Shown in pieces: positions 37,497 to 63,568 of a DNA stretch of 64,000 nt. Both the position numbers and the translations under genes were made by a program. Position 1 is the stretch's first letter. Every line of letters starts with the position of its first letter. The notes below the pieces were generated by a model. The model was not told where the DNA came from. It saw only the letters and a program-made list of their open reading frames with translations, and made no database searches. The stretch comes from Planctomycetota bacterium (GTDB taxonomy: Bacteria > Planctomycetota > SZUA-567 > H5-PLA8), in the NCBI GenBank assembly GCA_027493525.1, contig JAOSKN010000003.1, forward strand, positions 1,178,001-1,242,000, written 5' to 3'.

Positions 37497-38878
37497 GGGG
37501 TATTGTCAAAAGTTGTGGATGGCGAGAGGAGAATCATGCGGCGTTTTCCTTGATGCCGTCCACGAAACGGATGCCTCGAATCACGTCTTCCAGCAGCTTA
37601 TGGCCGTTTAGTTTCCGCCAGCGCTTCTCGGCAACCTGAGCGAGTTTGAACACCATCGCCAGCGTGGCTTGGCGCGTGCCGCAGCCTTTGGTCTTGTGCG
37701 TCCGCAAGCGCACCGTGGCGAAGGCGGACTCGATCGGGTTCGTCGTTCTCAGATGCGCCCAATGCTCGGCGGGGAAATCGTAAAACGCCAACAGCGCGTC
37801 TTGGTCCTTGAGCAGACACTCGACCGCCTTGGGATGCTTGGCTTGGTACGTCGCCACGAACGCATCGAACGCTGCCTGCGCATCCTTGCGCGTCTGGGCC
37901 ATCCAGATCTGATGCAATTTCTCCTTGGCTGAAGGCTGTAATTTCTTGGGCAGGCCGTTCAGCACATTCATCGTCTTGTGAACCCAGCAACGCTGCACCC
38001 GGCACTTGGCAAAGGCTTTCGGAAGCGCCGCCCAGAAGCCCAACGCACCGTCGCCGATGGCCAGGTCCGGGCCGTTCTTCAAGCCGCGCGCTTTCAGGTC
38101 CGTCAAGACCTCAAGCCAGGACTGTTCGCTCTCCCGCACGCCGTCATGCACGGCGACCAGTTCCTTCTTGCCGTCGGCCGTGGCCCCCATGACCACCAGG
38201 ATGCACGAGCGGTCTTCCTCCAGGCGGACGTTGAAGTAGATGCCGTCCACCCACAGATACACGTAGCGCTTGCCCGCCAAGGACCGCCGGTTCCAGCTCG
38301 CGTACTCGGAGGCCCAGACGTCCTTGATCCGCGTGATCGTATTGGCCGAAAGCCCCTTGGCTTGCGGCCCCAACAGCGCGCTCAGCGCCTCCGGAAAGTC
38401 CTGCGTGGAGATGCCCTTCAAATAGAGCCACGGGATCAGGTCTTCCATGCTCTTGGTCCGGCGCAAATAGGGCGGCAGAATCTTGCTCGTAAAGGGCTCT
38501 CGCTCGTCCGAGGGGCGCCGGTCTTCCACGCGCGGCTGCGCTACGCGTACGGCGCCGATGCCCGTCTGGATCGTTCGTTCCGGCAGGTAGCCGTTGCGCA
38601 CCACCACGCGATGCCCGCGCTCGTCCCGCGCCCGCTCGAAACGCTGGAGGTATTCTTCCACCTCCGCGTTCAGCGCCGCGGCTAGCAAGCGCTGCGCGCC
38701 TTCGTTCAGGATGTGAGTAAGCACGTCCCGGCTGGACGCTTGCGGATCGAGCGAAACCGTCGTACCCTGGCTCATGTGGCGTATCCTCCTGCCCTTGTGG
38801 GCGTGGTGGCCTTAGATCTCCACCAAGGATACGCCGCACTTTTCTTTCTCGCTCATCCACAACTTTTGACAATACCCC
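37497..38878 (-). mobile_element. Complete IS256-family insertion sequence, copy 1 (1382 bp)
   Basis: Ends GGGGTATTGTCAAAAGTTGTGGATG / reverse complement; 9-bp TSD CCAGAACTC at 37488-37496 and 38879-38887. Confidence 0.95.
37534..38775 (-). CDS. IS256 family transposase
   Basis: 413 aa; YLWVDGIYFNVRLEEDRSCILVVMGATADGKKELVAVHDGVRESEQSWLEVLTDLKARGL...GDGALGFWAALPKAFAKCRVQRCWVHKTMNVLNGLPK. Confidence 0.96.
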   Translation of the reverse strand: MSQGTTVSLDPQASSRDVLTHILNEGAQRLLAAALNAEVEEYLQRFERARDERGHRVVVRNGYLPERTIQTGIGAVRVAQPRVEDRRPSDEREPFTSKILPPYLRRTKSMEDLIPWLYLKGISTQDFPEALSALLGPQAKGLSANTITRIKDVWASEYASWNRRSLAGKRYVYLWVDGIYFNVRLEEDRSCILVVMGATADGKKELVAVHDGVRESEQSWLEVLTDLKARGLKNGPDLAIGDGALGFWAALPKAFAKCRVQRCWVHKTMNVLNGLPKKLQPSAKEKLHQIWMAQTRKDAQAAFDAFVATYQAKHPKAVECLLKDQDALLAFYDFPAEHWAHLRTTNPIESAFATVRLRTHKTKGCGTRQATLAMVFKLAQVAEKRWRKLNGHKLLEDVIRGIRFVDGIKENAA

Positions 38879-41665: not shown

Positions 41666-43171
41666 TCATGCCAGGCTCAAGAGTATCTCGACCTTCTCCT
41701 TGTCTATGATCTCGGTACGGTTCAACAACTTGATCGGGAACGGCTTTTCCGTATCTATGGCGCTCCAGCGTTCGGCCAAGAGCTTCAATGCGTCAGCCTG
41801 TACGAGAGCAATATCCCAATTCGTCCGGGCCTTATACTGGAATGCGGTTGCGAGGGACTGCTGAGTAAAACCAGGGCCTATGACCAAGAATGCGAGAGGG
41901 ACAAGGCCCTTTTCCCTCTCCTTCCTCAAGTACCCGTCGAACTGTGACTCAATATGATCCTGTAGATTTACCTGCTTCTCGTCCGTCTTGCAGTCCCACA
42001 ATATGATTTCCTTATTCTCCAAGAGTATTCGACCGTCTGCTTTCGATATTTTTCTGCTGTTGTCAATGTCTACTCCCAACAACTCGTCAATCAGGAAATC
42101 AGTAGCCTTCTCGAACTGGTGTTCGATATCCAAGTCTTTCGTTATGATCTTCTTGGCCTTCAAATCAGCGTACGCCCTTGAGGCGAGGAGTTCATAATTA
42201 TTGTACCATTCCTCACGCTCGTCTTGGGTCGTTCGCTCTTCAAAAGTTAGGTCGTCATAAAACTCCAGGAGCCGCAAAATGGTTTCGGCCTTCGAGCCGC
42301 TTCCCTTCAACCCAACAAGGCGGCACATTTCAGACAACTTTGCGCCGCCTAAGACTTCCAAAACTTGAGAGGGAAGCACGTCGCCGTTGACGATCCTCTC
42401 TATTACGTCTGGCTTATTGCCGCCCTTGTCCATTTTCTTAGAGTCGAGAACGTTCCTTAGGTCCGCCAAAGTAATACTGTCATGCTGAAGAATGCGCCGA
42501 TAGTTCATCCGCTGAAGTTCCATGCTGGTTATATCCTTCCGGAGTATGGCTACGATCTCCGTAGGAATAATGTCTATGTTCTTATTGTTCTCGTCCCGGT
42601 AGCTCCAAAGGATTCCCTCTCGTTGAAGGGCCTTGCGAGCCTCATTTATATCGTCTGCTGTATGCAGCTCGCATTTAGGCCGAGGAAACCTCTTAATATA
42701 GGCACCAATAAGCCAGTGCTCCTCCCTGGAAATGCTCAAGTAGTTACGCAGAGCGAGCAGGAGGTTTGCTTCGTCCTCGGAGACATTGTCATTCCTCCAT
42801 GCGGCCTCAAGGACGATCCTGTATGTATCGTAATGGTGCCAGCGGATCGGGTCATGTTTCTTGGGGTCGAAGAAATCTAGGTCCTTTGCAGCCTTAATGA
42901 GGTTCTTTTCATAATTGATTACCTTCTCGTCGAGTTTCGACTCCTCAAGTCCGTATGACTCCTCTTGGAGGAGGATCTCGTAGAGAATAATCTCTTTGAG
43001 ATTGCGCCTGTTTACGTCGGGGTCAGTTTCCTTGATTGCGGCGAGAACTCTATCCTTTGCTGTTAGTTTCTTGGCGTCCTTTACTATCGTTGCTTCGAGT
43101 GCTTTGTCGTCCAGCCCCCTGGTTGACTCAAGATAGTTGCCGAGAATCCTGAGCATGACCGTCTTTAACAT
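41666..43171 (-). CDS. TerB-like / SAP-like / C-terminal PD-(D/E)XK (FokI-like) nuclease candidate
   Basis: WRNDNVSEDEANLLLALRNYLSISREEHWLIGAYI (TerB-like); LADLRNVLDSKKMDKGGNKPDVIERIVNG and LSEMCRLVGLKGSGSKAETILRLLEF (SAP-like); KADGRILLENKEIILWDCKTDEKQVNLQDHIESQFDGYL...LAFLVIGPGF (D..DxK nuclease pattern). Confidence 0.6.
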   Translation of the reverse strand: MLKTVMLRILGNYLESTRGLDDKALEATIVKDAKKLTAKDRVLAAIKETDPDVNRRNLKEIILYEILLQEESYGLEESKLDEKVINYEKNLIKAAKDLDFFDPKKHDPIRWHHYDTYRIVLEAAWRNDNVSEDEANLLLALRNYLSISREEHWLIGAYIKRFPRPKCELHTADDINEARKALQREGILWSYRDENNKNIDIIPTEIVAILRKDITSMELQRMNYRRILQHDSITLADLRNVLDSKKMDKGGNKPDVIERIVNGDVLPSQVLEVLGGAKLSEMCRLVGLKGSGSKAETILRLLEFYDDLTFEERTTQDEREEWYNNYELLASRAYADLKAKKIITKDLDIEHQFEKATDFLIDELLGVDIDNSRKISKADGRILLENKEIILWDCKTDEKQVNLQDHIESQFDGYLRKEREKGLVPLAFLVIGPGFTQQSLATAFQYKARTNWDIALVQADALKLLAERWSAIDTEKPFPIKLLNRTEIIDKEKVEILLSLA

Positions 43172-43184
43172 GTGAGATGCGATG

Positions 43185-43435
43185 TCAGCGACCCCTTTGC
43201 ATAGAGCATGACGCCCGAGGAGTCTCTGCTCGGCAGCGTCCTTTTTTTGCTCGCCTGCGCCTCCGGGCCTTTTGCGGCTCGCTCGGTCTTTCTATGATTG
43301 GTTCTGAGGTAGGCGCCGGATCGGTCTGGGGCGGCGAAGGTTGCGCTTGAGGTTCGCTGGCCTTCTGCTGGACGGAAACTCCCTCAGGATTGGGGGTTTC
43401 GGGTGCCGGTTCTTCGCCCTTCGGCTCGTTTTCCA
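43185..43435 (-). CDS. Small acidic/Pro-rich protein with basic C-terminus, upstream of the nuclease candidate
   Basis: MENEPKGEEPAPETPNPEGVSVQQKASEPQ...EPQKARRRRRAKKGRCRAETPRASCSMQRGR*; RBS-like GGGAGGGGAGT before the ATG. Confidence 0.55.
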
Positions 43436-43622
43436 TACTCCCCTCCCGACTAGAAAAACGCATTGAAGCATGGAACTCTTTGAGGTCAAGGAAAACAAAG
43501 GATCGACGCAAAAAGGCCCAATTGCAGCATGCCTCGTAGGAAGCGCCGTGGGCTTGCTCCGTGCCACCCTTCACGTACTTCCAGTCCACCCGACGGCTAC
43601 CAGCCCCCACAACCCCAGCCCC

Positions 43623-45489: not shown

Positions 45490-46658
45490 ATGTCCAACCT
45501 GACCTCCGCACTCCTTCCCCTACTCCTCCTTGCGGCCTGCGCCGCGGCCCGCGCCGGCGACGGGGAGGCTCCGCCGAAGCCCGAGCGCGTCGTTTACGCC
45601 TGGTTCCCGGCCGACATGAACGACTGGAGCACCGCCGCGGTGGACTGGTCGGCGCTCACCCATATCTGCTTCCGCTCCGCCGTCGTCCAGGCCGACGGCA
45701 CGCTCAAGATCGGCGGCGGCTGCGACCCCGAGAAGATCAAGGCCCTCGTCGCCGAGGCCCACGCGCACAAGGTCAAGGTCTGCGTCCTCGTCTGGGGCAG
45801 CGGGCGCAAGGCCGCCGACGCGTACCTCGCCGAGCACGCCAAGACCTTCGCCGACGAGGTCCTCAAGTTTCTCAAGGAGTACGGCCTGGACGGTGTCAAC
45901 CTCGACGACGAGACCTGGCAGGAGCACAACGAGGTCGCCGGCGACTCCAACCGCGACCGCGTCAACCTGCTCTTCAAGACCCTCCACGACACGCTCAAGG
46001 CCGCTAACCCCGCCTACCACATCAGCTACGCCGCCCCGCCCGTCATCTCCGCCGACGACAAGTACGGCGCGGCCTGGCTCGACTTCAAGACCATCGTCCG
46101 GCACGTCGATCACATCACCTTCATGTCCTACTGCATGTTCACCCCCACCATCGGCTGGACCGGCAGCGCGCAGCCCGTCCGCGGCGGCGGCAAGGTCGGC
46201 GCCCACGCGCGCGACTACGACACCGTGATCAAGGACTACCTCGAAGCCACCGGCGGGGCGAAGGAGAAGCTCGTCCTGGGCCTGGGCCTCCACCGCGGCG
46301 GCAACGAGTGGACCGTCTCCAGCGACAAGCCCCTCGCCGGCATCTATCCGCTTCTCGCCAAGCCCCGCAAGCTCACCGCCGCCGAGGCCGCCGAGCAGGC
46401 CAAACGGCACGGCCGCCGCTTCGACCCCGAGCAGCAGGCCCCTGGTACTGCTACAAGGATAACGACGTCTTCGTGCAGGGCTGGTACGAGGACGACGAGT
46501 CCCTCGCCGCCAAGCTCAAGCTCGCCCGCGAACACGGCCTCCCCGGCGTCTGCCTCTGGGTCCTCGACGGCAAGGCCGAGCCCGCCTCCACCTTCAAGCT
46601 CCTGAAGGAGCACGTCCTCGACGCGCCCGCCCCCGCCGCCGCCCCCGCGGAAAAGTGA
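45490..46658 (+). CDS. GH18 family (chitinase-like) secreted protein; apparent 1-nt frameshift near 46440
   Basis: ERVVYAWFPADMNDWSTAAVDWSALTHICFRS...FLKEYGLDGVNLDDETW (GH18 DxxxxDxE-type motif). Frame switches to PWYCYKDNDVFVQGWYEDDESLAAKLKLAREHGLPGVCLWVLDGK... to 46658. Confidence 0.85.
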
Positions 46659-46742
46659 ACCGCGCGCACGGCGCTAACTCGATCACGCCCTGAAATTCCC
46701 CCGGGAATTCTATTGTCTTACAAATGCCGCAGGGGTATTATA

Positions 46743-55904: not shown

Positions 55905-57122
55905 ATGGTGGCGCGAGCCGAACCCCTGCGCAGGCGTGAACTTGAGTCCGCTGAGTGGCTCCCTTGGCGTCGTAAGCGAAGCGCTGAAATCCACCACTCA
56001 AGCACAATCTATCAGGCCAACTGGTTGACCTTTACCATCGGCGGGCGCAGGTTCTTCCTGTCGCGGTATCGTATCCAATGCCCCGAGTTGGGCATCTTCC
56101 TGAGCCGAGACTTCCTGCCGTACCCAAACAAGTACAGGGCGTGGTCGAATAATCCCGTGGGGCAGGTGGATAGGGACGGATTGGCTTCAACTGATACACT
56201 TACAGGATATCACCTTGACATATCGTTGTCTGGATTGCGGCCAGAAGTCAGAATCGAAATTGCCAAGAGATGGCTAGATTCTGCCGAACAATGGATCAAT
56301 TTTTATAAGGACGACCTAGAACAAGCAACCAAATTTGGCATAACTAACTTGACAAGCCATCAAGAATCACTTCATCAAGCAGAATTAGAGTACGCCAGAA
56401 GAAGGCAGAAATTCCGAGAAATCTTAAGGGATGCTCTCAATGACTTTGCCCAAAGCGAGGATAAGCGTGTACGCGACGAATACGAAAGAATAAGATGCAA
56501 GAAGGTTTGTGAGTGCATGGAGGACGCTCTCTTGCTATTCTTTGAGGCTAATAGGGCAAGGCGTAACGACCCTGAATGGAACAATGTTCTCCAAGAATTC
56601 TTGACTGCCGGAGGGGATAAAATTCGCAATGACTTTATTGTGGCAGTTGCGCTGACAGTGGTTTCAGCAGGGGTACTTGCATTTGCAAAAGCACCAGTTG
56701 TTCTAGAATCGACCATTGCCGTCGGGAGTACGGTTACGAGAACTGCCTTATTGGGCCACAAAGCTGCGCTTGCGGCTGAGGCGTTAGAGATTGGCCTGGG
56801 AGGCCTTAAAATCTACAATATGCAGGATCTAACTCGTACCATTTCGTCGGTTGAAGATTTGGGGACATTGGATACAGGAGTTATAAACAAACTTAATGGA
56901 ATAAAGCCAGGCCTCGGTGATAGATATAATGCCTATTGGCGTAAGTCAATCCATGGAGGTGTTTTCAATCTTAAGCAATTGCGGGAGCGTCTACGGGATT
57001 GCGACAATAGTCCAAGTCGATTACTTGGCGACGATAGACGGAGCGAAATTATACGCAATCTCACGGAGGCCGAACAGTCCGAGTTGAGAGATTTGCGGAA
57101 GGAGTACGGATGCGATAGGTAG
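55905..57122 (+). CDS. Orphan Rhs-core fragment with variable C-terminal (candidate toxin tip), module 1
   Basis: STIYQANWLTFTIGGRRFFLSRYRIQCPELGIFLSRDFLPYPNKYRAWSNNPVGQVDRDGL (Rhs core-like), then a low-GC-coded helical and TM-containing C-terminus. Confidence 0.7.
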   Translation: MVARAEPLRRRELESAEWLPWRRKRSAEIHHSSTIYQANWLTFTIGGRRFFLSRYRIQCPELGIFLSRDFLPYPNKYRAWSNNPVGQVDRDGLASTDTLTGYHLDISLSGLRPEVRIEIAKRWLDSAEQWINFYKDDLEQATKFGITNLTSHQESLHQAELEYARRRQKFREILRDALNDFAQSEDKRVRDEYERIRCKKVCECMEDALLLFFEANRARRNDPEWNNVLQEFLTAGGDKIRNDFIVAVALTVVSAGVLAFAKAPVVLESTIAVGSTVTRTALLGHKAALAAEALEIGLGGLKIYNMQDLTRTISSVEDLGTLDTGVINKLNGIKPGLGDRYNAYWRKSIHGGVFNLKQLRERLRDCDNSPSRLLGDDRRSEIIRNLTEAEQSELRDLRKEYGCDR

Positions 57123-60799: not shown

Positions 60800-61771
60800 G
60801 TGGAGCGTTACCCGCGCCGAGCGGCGCCCAGCAAGCGCCCCCGTCCCGTCCGCGCCCAGTCCGGCGCATGGGCCGGCGAGCTCATCTACCAGGCCAACTG
60901 GTTGACCTTTACCATAGGGGCCAAGCGGTTGTGTTTGAGTCCTACTCGTGTTTATGACCCGGAGACAGGGAGGTTCCCAAGTAGAGATCCGCTCGATACT
61001 TATATACTTCTTAGTGGCCACAGCCCAAATGATTCATCCGCTATATTTGAGGGTGGCATTCCTGGAGCAATGCTATTAGCCCGAAGGACTCAATTATTGC
61101 AAAAATATGTTTTCGTAGATAATTCACCAGTTCTCTTAGTTGACCCGGTGGGATTGTACTGCTGTGTAACTGATTTTACCATAATTGATACAGGGTATAT
61201 CAAGTATCCGCCTGCTCAGCCTGGACAAACGTACCCTTATCCCCTTCGTAATTGGGCAGGAGGAAGTATTAATTTTGTTGGAATTGTTGCGGCCGGAAAA
61301 AATAAGGGAAAGCTTTACTATGAATCTACCGTGCTGTTTAAGGTCTTAGTCAAACTGAGCGATGGATCAGATCCCGAAGACTGTTCATTTGTGCGTGAAT
61401 GGAAAAACGAAATTATTGCGGAAAACAACATTGTCAAGAAGGATCCATATGGCATTGAGATTCCACTAAAGGCTATAGTTGTGGGAAAGACAATTGAAAT
61501 TTATGATAACCCTGGAATTATTTTTGTGGGGAGGCGTGCCGTTGGCTTGGAGCTAACTAGTGATTGGCGTTTAACCGTAAAGGATAAAACTGGGCGAATA
61601 CCGGAATCCTGGATTGATTATAGATTGGCGATATATAATACAATTCTTGCAAAAAGTTCTGGAATTGAGGAAAAGGGAAAGAAGACAAGTGAACCCTGCC
61701 CATTATCCATTAAAGAAGCCTTTGGATGTGACGTAAACCGAATCGTTAATGTTCCAGAATACGGGAAATGA
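60800..61771 (+). CDS. Orphan Rhs-core fragment with a different C-terminal (candidate toxin tip), module 2
   Basis: ELIYQANWLTFTIGAKRLCLSPTRVYDPETGRFPSRDPLDTYILLSGHSPND...YVFVDNSPVLLVDPVGLYCCV; unrelated C-terminus to module 1. Confidence 0.72.
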   Translation: MERYPRRAAPSKRPRPVRAQSGAWAGELIYQANWLTFTIGAKRLCLSPTRVYDPETGRFPSRDPLDTYILLSGHSPNDSSAIFEGGIPGAMLLARRTQLLQKYVFVDNSPVLLVDPVGLYCCVTDFTIIDTGYIKYPPAQPGQTYPYPLRNWAGGSINFVGIVAAGKNKGKLYYESTVLFKVLVKLSDGSDPEDCSFVREWKNEIIAENNIVKKDPYGIEIPLKAIVVGKTIEIYDNPGIIFVGRRAVGLELTSDWRLTVKDKTGRIPESWIDYRLAIYNTILAKSSGIEEKGKKTSEPCPLSIKEAFGCDVNRIVNVPEYGK

Positions 61772-62186: not shown

Positions 62187-63568
62187 GGGGTATTGTCAAA
62201 AGTTGTGGATGGCGAGAGGAGAATCATGCGGCGTTTTCCTTGATGCCGTCCACGAAACGGATGCCTCGAATCACGTCTTCCAGCAGCTTATGGCCGTTTA
62301 GTTTCCGCCAGCGCTTCTCGGCAACCTGAGCGAGTTTGAACACCATCGCCAGCGTGGCTTGGCGCGTGCCGCAGCCTTTGGTCTTGTGCGTCCGCAAGCG
62401 CACCGTGGCGAAGGCGGACTCGATCGGGTTCGTCGTTCTCAGATGCGCCCAATGCTCGGCGGGGAAATCGTAAAACGCCAACAGCGCGTCTTGGTCCTTG
62501 AGCAGACACTCGACCGCCTTGGGATGCTTGGCTTGGTACGTCGCCACGAACGCATCGAACGCTGCCTGCGCATCCTTGCGCGTCTGGGCCATCCAGATCT
62601 GATGCAATTTCTCCTTGGCTGAAGGCTGTAATTTCTTGGGCAGGCCGTTCAGCACATTCATCGTCTTGTGAACCCAGCAACGCTGCACCCGGCACTTGGC
62701 AAAGGCTTTCGGAAGCGCCGCCCAGAAGCCCAACGCACCGTCGCCGATGGCCAGGTCCGGGCCGTTCTTCAAGCCGCGCGCTTTCAGGTCCGTCAAGACC
62801 TCAAGCCAGGACTGTTCGCTCTCCCGCACGCCGTCATGCACGGCGACCAGTTCCTTCTTGCCGTCGGCCGTGGCCCCCATGACCACCAGGATGCACGAGC
62901 GGTCTTCCTCCAGGCGGACGTTGAAGTAGATGCCGTCCACCCACAGATACACGTAGCGCTTGCCCGCCAAGGACCGCCGGTTCCAGCTCGCGTACTCGGA
63001 GGCCCAGACGTCCTTGATCCGCGTGATCGTATTGGCCGAAAGCCCCTTGGCTTGCGGCCCCAACAGCGCGCTCAGCGCCTCCGGAAAGTCCTGCGTGGAG
63101 ATGCCCTTCAAATAGAGCCACGGGATCAGGTCTTCCATGCTCTTGGTCCGGCGCAAATAGGGCGGCAGAATCTTGCTCGTAAAGGGCTCTCGCTCGTCCG
63201 AGGGGCGCCGGTCTTCCACGCGCGGCTGCGCTACGCGTACGGCGCCGATGCCCGTCTGGATCGTTCGTTCCGGCAGGTAGCCGTTGCGCACCACCACGCG
63301 ATGCCCGCGCTCGTCCCGCGCCCGCTCGAAACGCTGGAGGTATTCTTCCACCTCCGCGTTCAGCGCCGCGGCTAGCAAGCGCTGCGCGCCTTCGTTCAGG
63401 ATGTGAGTAAGCCCGTCCCGGCTGGCAGCTTGCGGATCGAGCGAAACCGTCGTACCCTGGCTCATGTGGCGTATCCTCCTGCCCTTGTGGGCGTGGTGGC
63501 CTTAGATCTCCACCAAGGATACGCCGCACTTTTCTTTCTCGCTCATCCACAACTTTTGACAATACCCC
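62187..63568 (-). mobile_element. Complete IS256-family insertion sequence, copy 2 (1382 bp)
   Basis: Same ends and length as copy 1; 9-bp TSD CATATATGC at 62178-62186 and 63569-63577. Confidence 0.96.
62224..63465 (-). CDS. IS256 family transposase (copy 2)
   Basis: Same 413-aa protein as copy 1 except near the N-terminus (QAASRDGLTH vs QASSRDVLTH). Confidence 0.96.
   Translation of the reverse strand: MSQGTTVSLDPQAASRDGLTHILNEGAQRLLAAALNAEVEEYLQRFERARDERGHRVVVRNGYLPERTIQTGIGAVRVAQPRVEDRRPSDEREPFTSKILPPYLRRTKSMEDLIPWLYLKGISTQDFPEALSALLGPQAKGLSANTITRIKDVWASEYASWNRRSLAGKRYVYLWVDGIYFNVRLEEDRSCILVVMGATADGKKELVAVHDGVRESEQSWLEVLTDLKARGLKNGPDLAIGDGALGFWAALPKAFAKCRVQRCWVHKTMNVLNGLPKKLQPSAKEKLHQIWMAQTRKDAQAAFDAFVATYQAKHPKAVECLLKDQDALLAFYDFPAEHWAHLRTTNPIESAFATVRLRTHKTKGCGTRQATLAMVFKLAQVAEKRWRKLNGHKLLEDVIRGIRFVDGIKENAA

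What the first reader, a model, noticed from the sequence alone, without database searches (positions are those of the whole stretch)
41666..43435. Low-GC gene pair: TerB-like + SAP-like + FokI-like PD-(D/E)XK protein with a small charged partner
The 501-aa product combines a TerB-like segment, two consecutive SAP-like helix pairs, and a C-terminal KADG...WDCKTD...Q...Y...LAFLVIGPGF pattern that resembles the FokI cleavage domain layout (KPDG...VDTK...Q...Y...FLFVSGHF). It is visibly lower in GC than its neighbours and is preceded by a small ORF with a poly-Arg tail. Architecture suggests an undescribed defence or DNA-processing module; function is inference.
Basis: partly seen in the sequence, partly recalled or inferred. 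Interest (0 to 1): 0.75.

Follow-up and report, generated by a model that had tools for sequence, protein, structure and literature searches.

The report
Orphan SAP-domain FokI-like nuclease gene
A horizontally acquired gene, split here by a one-base frame break, encodes a DNA-binding protein ending in a FokI-type DNA-cutting domain; relatives ride on proviruses, plasmids and scattered chromosomes, which makes it a likely but untested new anti-phage or anti-plasmid nuclease.

Summary
ORF 41666-43171(-) encodes 501 aa with two SAP domains (Pfam, significant), a weak TerB-like half-domain, a probable winged helix and a C-terminal nuclease domain. AlphaFold2 models the nuclease at pLDDT 88. All credible Foldseek PDB hits are FokI and its relatives BspD6I (best E 1.2e-5, probability 1.00), and profile comparison with Pfam FokI cleavage domains agrees (95%). 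The catalytic E, D and (D/E)xK are kept in every relative aligned. The 'small charged partner' is not a second gene. It is the N-terminus of the same protein, cut off by a one-base frame break at A7 (43242-43248). Ten relatives carry it as one uninterrupted ORF, and a neighbouring gene is also frame-broken, so an assembly indel is likely. The gene is low-GC, absent from the sister genome and patchy (13 of 349 genomes of one class). It sits at unrelated sites with no conserved partner and occurs on a halovirus provirus, a Pseudoalteromonas prophage and a plasmid beside SIR2-HerA. Its middle part is shared with a Shango-like SAP-BrxD/BrxHI system. Best reading: a stand-alone, mobile-element-borne nuclease acting in defence or inter-element conflict. 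Nuclease fold near-certain; defence inferred. Not in PADLOC or NCBIfam; no paper found.

The parts
41666..43436 (-). whole gene in two frames: ATG at 43436, frame break at A7 43242-43248, stop at 41666
   Evidence: frames and homologues
   Evidence: sequence; same kind of tail in ten relatives
43242..43271 (-). basic patch KARRRRRAKK ending in the A7 run
   Evidence: basic patch at the same place in relatives
43242..43248 (-). A7 homopolymer at which the reading frame breaks
   Evidence: no break in ten relatives
43172..43240 (-). conserved block DAAEQRLLGRHALCKGVADIASH, in frame upstream of the listed ATG of the 501-aa ORF
41666..43171 (-). 501-aa ORF as listed (lacks the native N-terminus)
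42719..42895 (-). TerB-like half-domain, residues ~93-151
   Evidence: hhalign to six TerB domains E 4.7e-5, probability 68%; other parts of the protein 0.2-0.8%
42527..42658 (-). probable winged helix, residues ~172-215
   Evidence: helix and beta-hairpin in the AF2 model; weak wHTH hits
42389..42472 (-). SAP domain 1, residues 234-261
   Evidence: Pfam PF02037 above cut-off
42254..42337 (-). SAP domain 2, residues 279-306
   Evidence: PF18953 (sub-threshold here; above cut-off in the homologue)
41669..42214 (-). FokI-like PD-(D/E)XK nuclease domain, residues ~320-501
   Evidence: AF2 pLDDT 87.9; Foldseek FokI/BspD6I; hhalign to FokI_cleav_dom
41987..42112 (-). predicted active site E354, D379, D393-x-K395
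   Evidence: kept in all family members aligned, D393 as D or E

Best explanation
A stand-alone, horizontally mobile nuclease. The full protein (about 590-630 aa in most unbroken relatives) has a disordered acidic tail and a basic patch, a helical region with a TerB-like half-domain and probable winged helix, two SAP domains, and a C-terminal FokI-like nuclease. The SAP, basic and winged-helix parts should hold DNA with little sequence specificity. The TerB-like region probably senses or docks something made during infection or DNA entry. On activation the nuclease domains, by analogy with FokI, pair up and cut DNA of an invading phage or plasmid (or the cell's own DNA, as in abortive infection). 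Shown here: family, architecture, fold, kept active-site residues, mobility and absence of a fixed partner. Inferred: catalytic activity, dimerisation, trigger, target and defence role. In this assembly the gene is split by one base, so the window copy may be an assembly artefact or a broken gene.
For: Fold and profile both give FokI-type nuclease, with catalytic residues kept across planctomycetes, haloarchaea and Pseudoalteromonas. SAP domains. Patchy: 1 of 101 relatives, 13 of 349 genomes of another class, several as fragments or with stops. Lower GC than its locus in most loci. Inserted between zincin and PNP genes that remain neighbours, without it, in G002 and G004. Carried on the induced provirus Humcor1 (PMC7911831), an integrase-bearing viral contig, the end of a Pseudoalteromonas prophage and a plasmid directly before SIR2-HerA near a type IV restriction gene. 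Middle module shared with a SAP-BrxD ATPase + BrxHI helicase pair that also scores against Shango SngB/SngC.
Against: No phage or plasmid assay exists. No PADLOC, NCBIfam or informative PHROG hit. In planctomycetes the neighbours are not visibly defence genes in most loci. Viruses also carry DNA-processing nucleases for their own replication. The window copy is frame-broken.
Confidence: 0.55

Rival explanations
1. A DNA-processing nuclease that serves the mobile element itself (recombination, replication or repair of viral DNA, or homing-like cutting of rival elements) rather than host defence.
For: Present on the provirus Humcor1, a prophage and an integrase-bearing contig; SAP domains occur in repair nucleases (general knowledge).
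Against: Most planctomycete copies found are on chromosomal contigs at unrelated sites with no conserved viral neighbours; the prophage copy lies past the tail genes at the element's edge; one plasmid copy is next to SIR2-HerA.
Confidence: 0.25
2. A restriction enzyme of type IIS or type IV kind: sequence- or modification-specific recognition through the SAP/winged-helix part, with host DNA spared by methylation or by lack of the modification.
For: FokI-like cleavage domain fused to DNA-binding modules; no conserved methyltransferase, which would suit type IV.
Against: A type IIS system needs a partner methyltransferase and none is conserved; SAP domains usually lack base specificity (general knowledge); no modified-base-reading domain was detected.
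Confidence: 0.15
3. The window copy is a decaying pseudogene of no current function.
For: One-base frame break at A7; relatives include fragments and copies with stops.
Against: The 501-codon frame is otherwise open and differs from its closest homologue mainly at third codon positions; another gene 3 kb away is also frame-broken, pointing to assembly indels.
Confidence: 0.2

Closest known systems
FokI cleavage domain family (Pfam PF09254; FokI, Nt.BspD6I, R.BspD6I2)
   Same: nuclease fold and active-site layout (FE in helix, D...(D/E)xK), best PDB hits, profile match 95%
   Different: below Pfam detection; no FokI-type recognition domains and no partner methyltransferase; fused to TerB-like and SAP modules
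Shango (SngA TerB-like, SngB ATPase, SngC helicase; PMC10250203)
   Same: TerB-like element; the middle module also occurs in a SAP-BrxD ATPase + BrxHI helicase pair scoring against SngB/SngC
   Different: single gene with a nuclease; no ATPase or helicase partner; no BrxC/BrxD family member found in this genome
614-aa Pseudoalteromonas plasmid/prophage proteins and phrog_34709 (unknown function)
   Same: similar overall layout and nuclease motif; 24-25% identity in the nuclease region
   Different: SAP domains not recognised by Pfam; E instead of D in the (D/E)xK; one copy next to SIR2-HerA
Haloarchaeal homologues (Humcor1 provirus, Natrinema plasmid)
   Same: align over most of the length at ~24%
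   Different: no basic N-terminal tail; insertions; SAP not recognised by Pfam

Membership tests
FokI-like PD-(D/E)XK nuclease domain | FokI cleavage-domain fold | tested here: met
   Foldseek hits 1-12 are all FokI/BspD6I, probability 0.97-1.00, TMq 0.46-0.67
FokI-like PD-(D/E)XK nuclease domain | catalytic D and (D/E)xK | tested here: met
   D379, D393 (D or E) and K395 kept in all 15 aligned members
FokI-like PD-(D/E)XK nuclease domain | sequence-profile relationship | tested here: met
   hhalign probability 95.4%, E 1.9e-8 for one comparison; control regions 0.1%. Pfam's own threshold not met by single sequences
FokI-like PD-(D/E)XK nuclease domain | cleavage-domain dimerisation and DNA cutting | not testable with these tools
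   needs biochemistry
Type IIS restriction-modification system | cognate DNA methyltransferase | tested here: not met
   no gene shared among family loci; none among the window neighbours tested
SAP domain proteins | Pfam SAP above cut-off | tested here: met
   27.9 bits against 23.9; stronger in homologues
TerB domain | full TerB domain match | tested here: inconclusive
   no Pfam TerB hit; profile match to second half only, 68%
Shango | SngA-SngB-SngC operon (TerB protein, ATPase, helicase) | tested here: not met
   no ATPase/helicase next to the gene; no PF10923 match in the genome
known anti-phage system (PADLOC-DB 2.0.0) | match to a PADLOC model | tested here: not met

The most novel reading that the evidence does not exclude
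A new single-gene immune nuclease family spanning planctomycetes, gammaproteobacterial plasmids/prophages and haloarchaeal viruses, in which one TerB-like/SAP DNA-engaging module is paired either with a FokI-type nuclease or with a BrxD/BrxHI ATPase-helicase, linking Shango/BREX-type systems to FokI-type cutters.
Probability: 0.35. Interest if true: 0.75.

Novelty: new variant of a known kind. Interest (0 to 1): 0.55.

Why it matters
FokI-like cleavage domains are known mainly from restriction and nicking enzymes. Here one is fused to SAP modules in a partnerless, mobile gene that crosses bacteria and archaea and rides on viruses and plasmids. If it is immune, it adds a defence family that present catalogues miss. 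Its middle module, shared with a SAP-BrxD/BrxHI pair, offers a concrete way to ask what the TerB/SAP part of Shango-like systems recognises.

Tried and rejected
Two-gene reading: rejected, ten relatives show one ORF. Programmed frameshift at A7: disfavoured, because the closest homologue has no A run at that point. Conserved operon partner: none found by all-against-all comparison of 22 loci; only Ser/Thr-kinase-like ORFs recur, a common planctomycete family. Flanking repeats or tRNA as insertion marks: nothing convincing, no tRNA in the window. Sequence-only PDB search with the nuclease profile: only a weak NucS hit, E 0.6-1. Foldseek for TerB in the full model: no TerB hit; that model is weaker (pLDDT 74, pTM 0.42). 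Literature searches for FokI-like plus SAP, and for SAP plus TerB plus defence, found no description.

Full report
Observation. The ORF at 41666-43171 on the minus strand encodes 501 aa. Its GC is 0.49, against about 0.66 around it. It is a real gene: its frame is open for 541 codons, against at most 257 in 200 shuffles, and differences from the nearest homologue concentrate at third codon positions.

Correction: one gene, not two. The homologue in a planctomycete MAG (L002, 66% identical) is a single 628-aa ORF. In the window the tail and basic patch are in one frame and the conserved block in another; they meet at a run of seven A (43242-43248). Ten planctomycete relatives have the whole as one ORF. 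A neighbouring GH18 gene is also frame-broken near 46440 compared with an intact homologue, so assembly indels are the likeliest cause. A true mutation cannot be excluded without reads.

Domains. Pfam finds SAP domains above cut-off, more strongly in relatives. A TerB-like half-domain is supported only weakly (hhalign 68%, E 4.7e-5 for one comparison). The AF2 model suggests a winged helix before the SAP pair. The C-terminal 193 residues fold with pLDDT 87.9 and pTM 0.85. The first twelve Foldseek hits in the PDB are all FokI, Nt.BspD6I or R.BspD6I2, with nothing else credible. Profile comparison with Pfam FokI_cleav_dom matches taken from planctomycete genomes (four loci, of which three gave usable sequence) gives 95% probability, and other parts of the protein give 0.1%. 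Residues E354, D379, D393 (D or E) and K395 are kept throughout.

Distribution and context. The gene is in 1 of 101 related genomes, the window's own, and not in the same-genus genome G001. It is in 13 of 349 genomes of another planctomycete class, several times as fragments or with stops. In G002 and G004 the two genes flanking it here (zincin and purine nucleoside phosphorylase) lie close together without it. Among 22 loci the gene itself is the only convincingly shared one. Distant relatives lie on the induced halovirus provirus Humcor1 (PMC7911831), a Natrinema plasmid near an integrase and a IIG-like methylase, the end of a Pseudoalteromonas prophage, and a Pseudoalteromonas plasmid directly before SIR2-HerA. 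A closer relative (56%) lies on a viral contig with an integrase.

Link to Shango-like systems. In genome G390 a 968-aa protein carries the same middle module with repeated SAP domains fused to a BrxD-type ATPase, followed by a BrxHI-type helicase; PADLOC scores them against BrxD/SngB and BrxHI/SngC. Shango is an experimentally shown anti-phage system with TerB, ATPase and helicase (PMC10250203). The window gene is not a Shango member: it lacks both partners.

Mechanism. Most likely a partnerless nuclease that docks on DNA through SAP/basic/winged-helix parts, is held or triggered through the TerB-like part, and cuts through a FokI-like domain, probably as a dimer. Its pattern of spread fits defence or conflict between mobile elements. 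Architecture and fold are shown; activity, trigger, target and defence role are inferred.

Novelty. The nuclease kind is known; this architecture is absent from PADLOC and NCBIfam, and I found no paper describing it. It is best called a new variant of a known kind.

Noticed in passing
L016 (G390 contig C16) 1870-7028: A 968-aa protein with repeated SAP domains fused to a BrxD-type ATPase, followed by a BrxHI-type helicase: a two-gene Shango/BREX-like system with a SAP module shared with the window protein.
   Followed up: partly
window 45490-46660: GH18-family gene frame-broken near 46440 relative to the intact homologue in G006; suggests indel errors in this assembly.
   Followed up: partly
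window 55905-57122 and 60800-61771: Two low-GC ORFs that by eye look like RHS-core tips with variable C-termini, each followed by a small ORF; Pfam found nothing at E 0.001.
   Followed up: no
window 37534-38775 and 62224-63465: Two nearly identical Mutator-family transposases; the first cuts into a WD40-like ORF.
   Followed up: no
L017 171-5012 and L019 6849-11694: In two Pseudoalteromonas plasmids the 614-aa relative is followed either by SIR2-HerA or by a metallophosphoesterase and an NTPase: a swap at the same position near a type IV restriction gene.
   Followed up: partly
G648 (L049, L050): One genome holds two intact, similar copies of the family gene at different sites.
   Followed up: no
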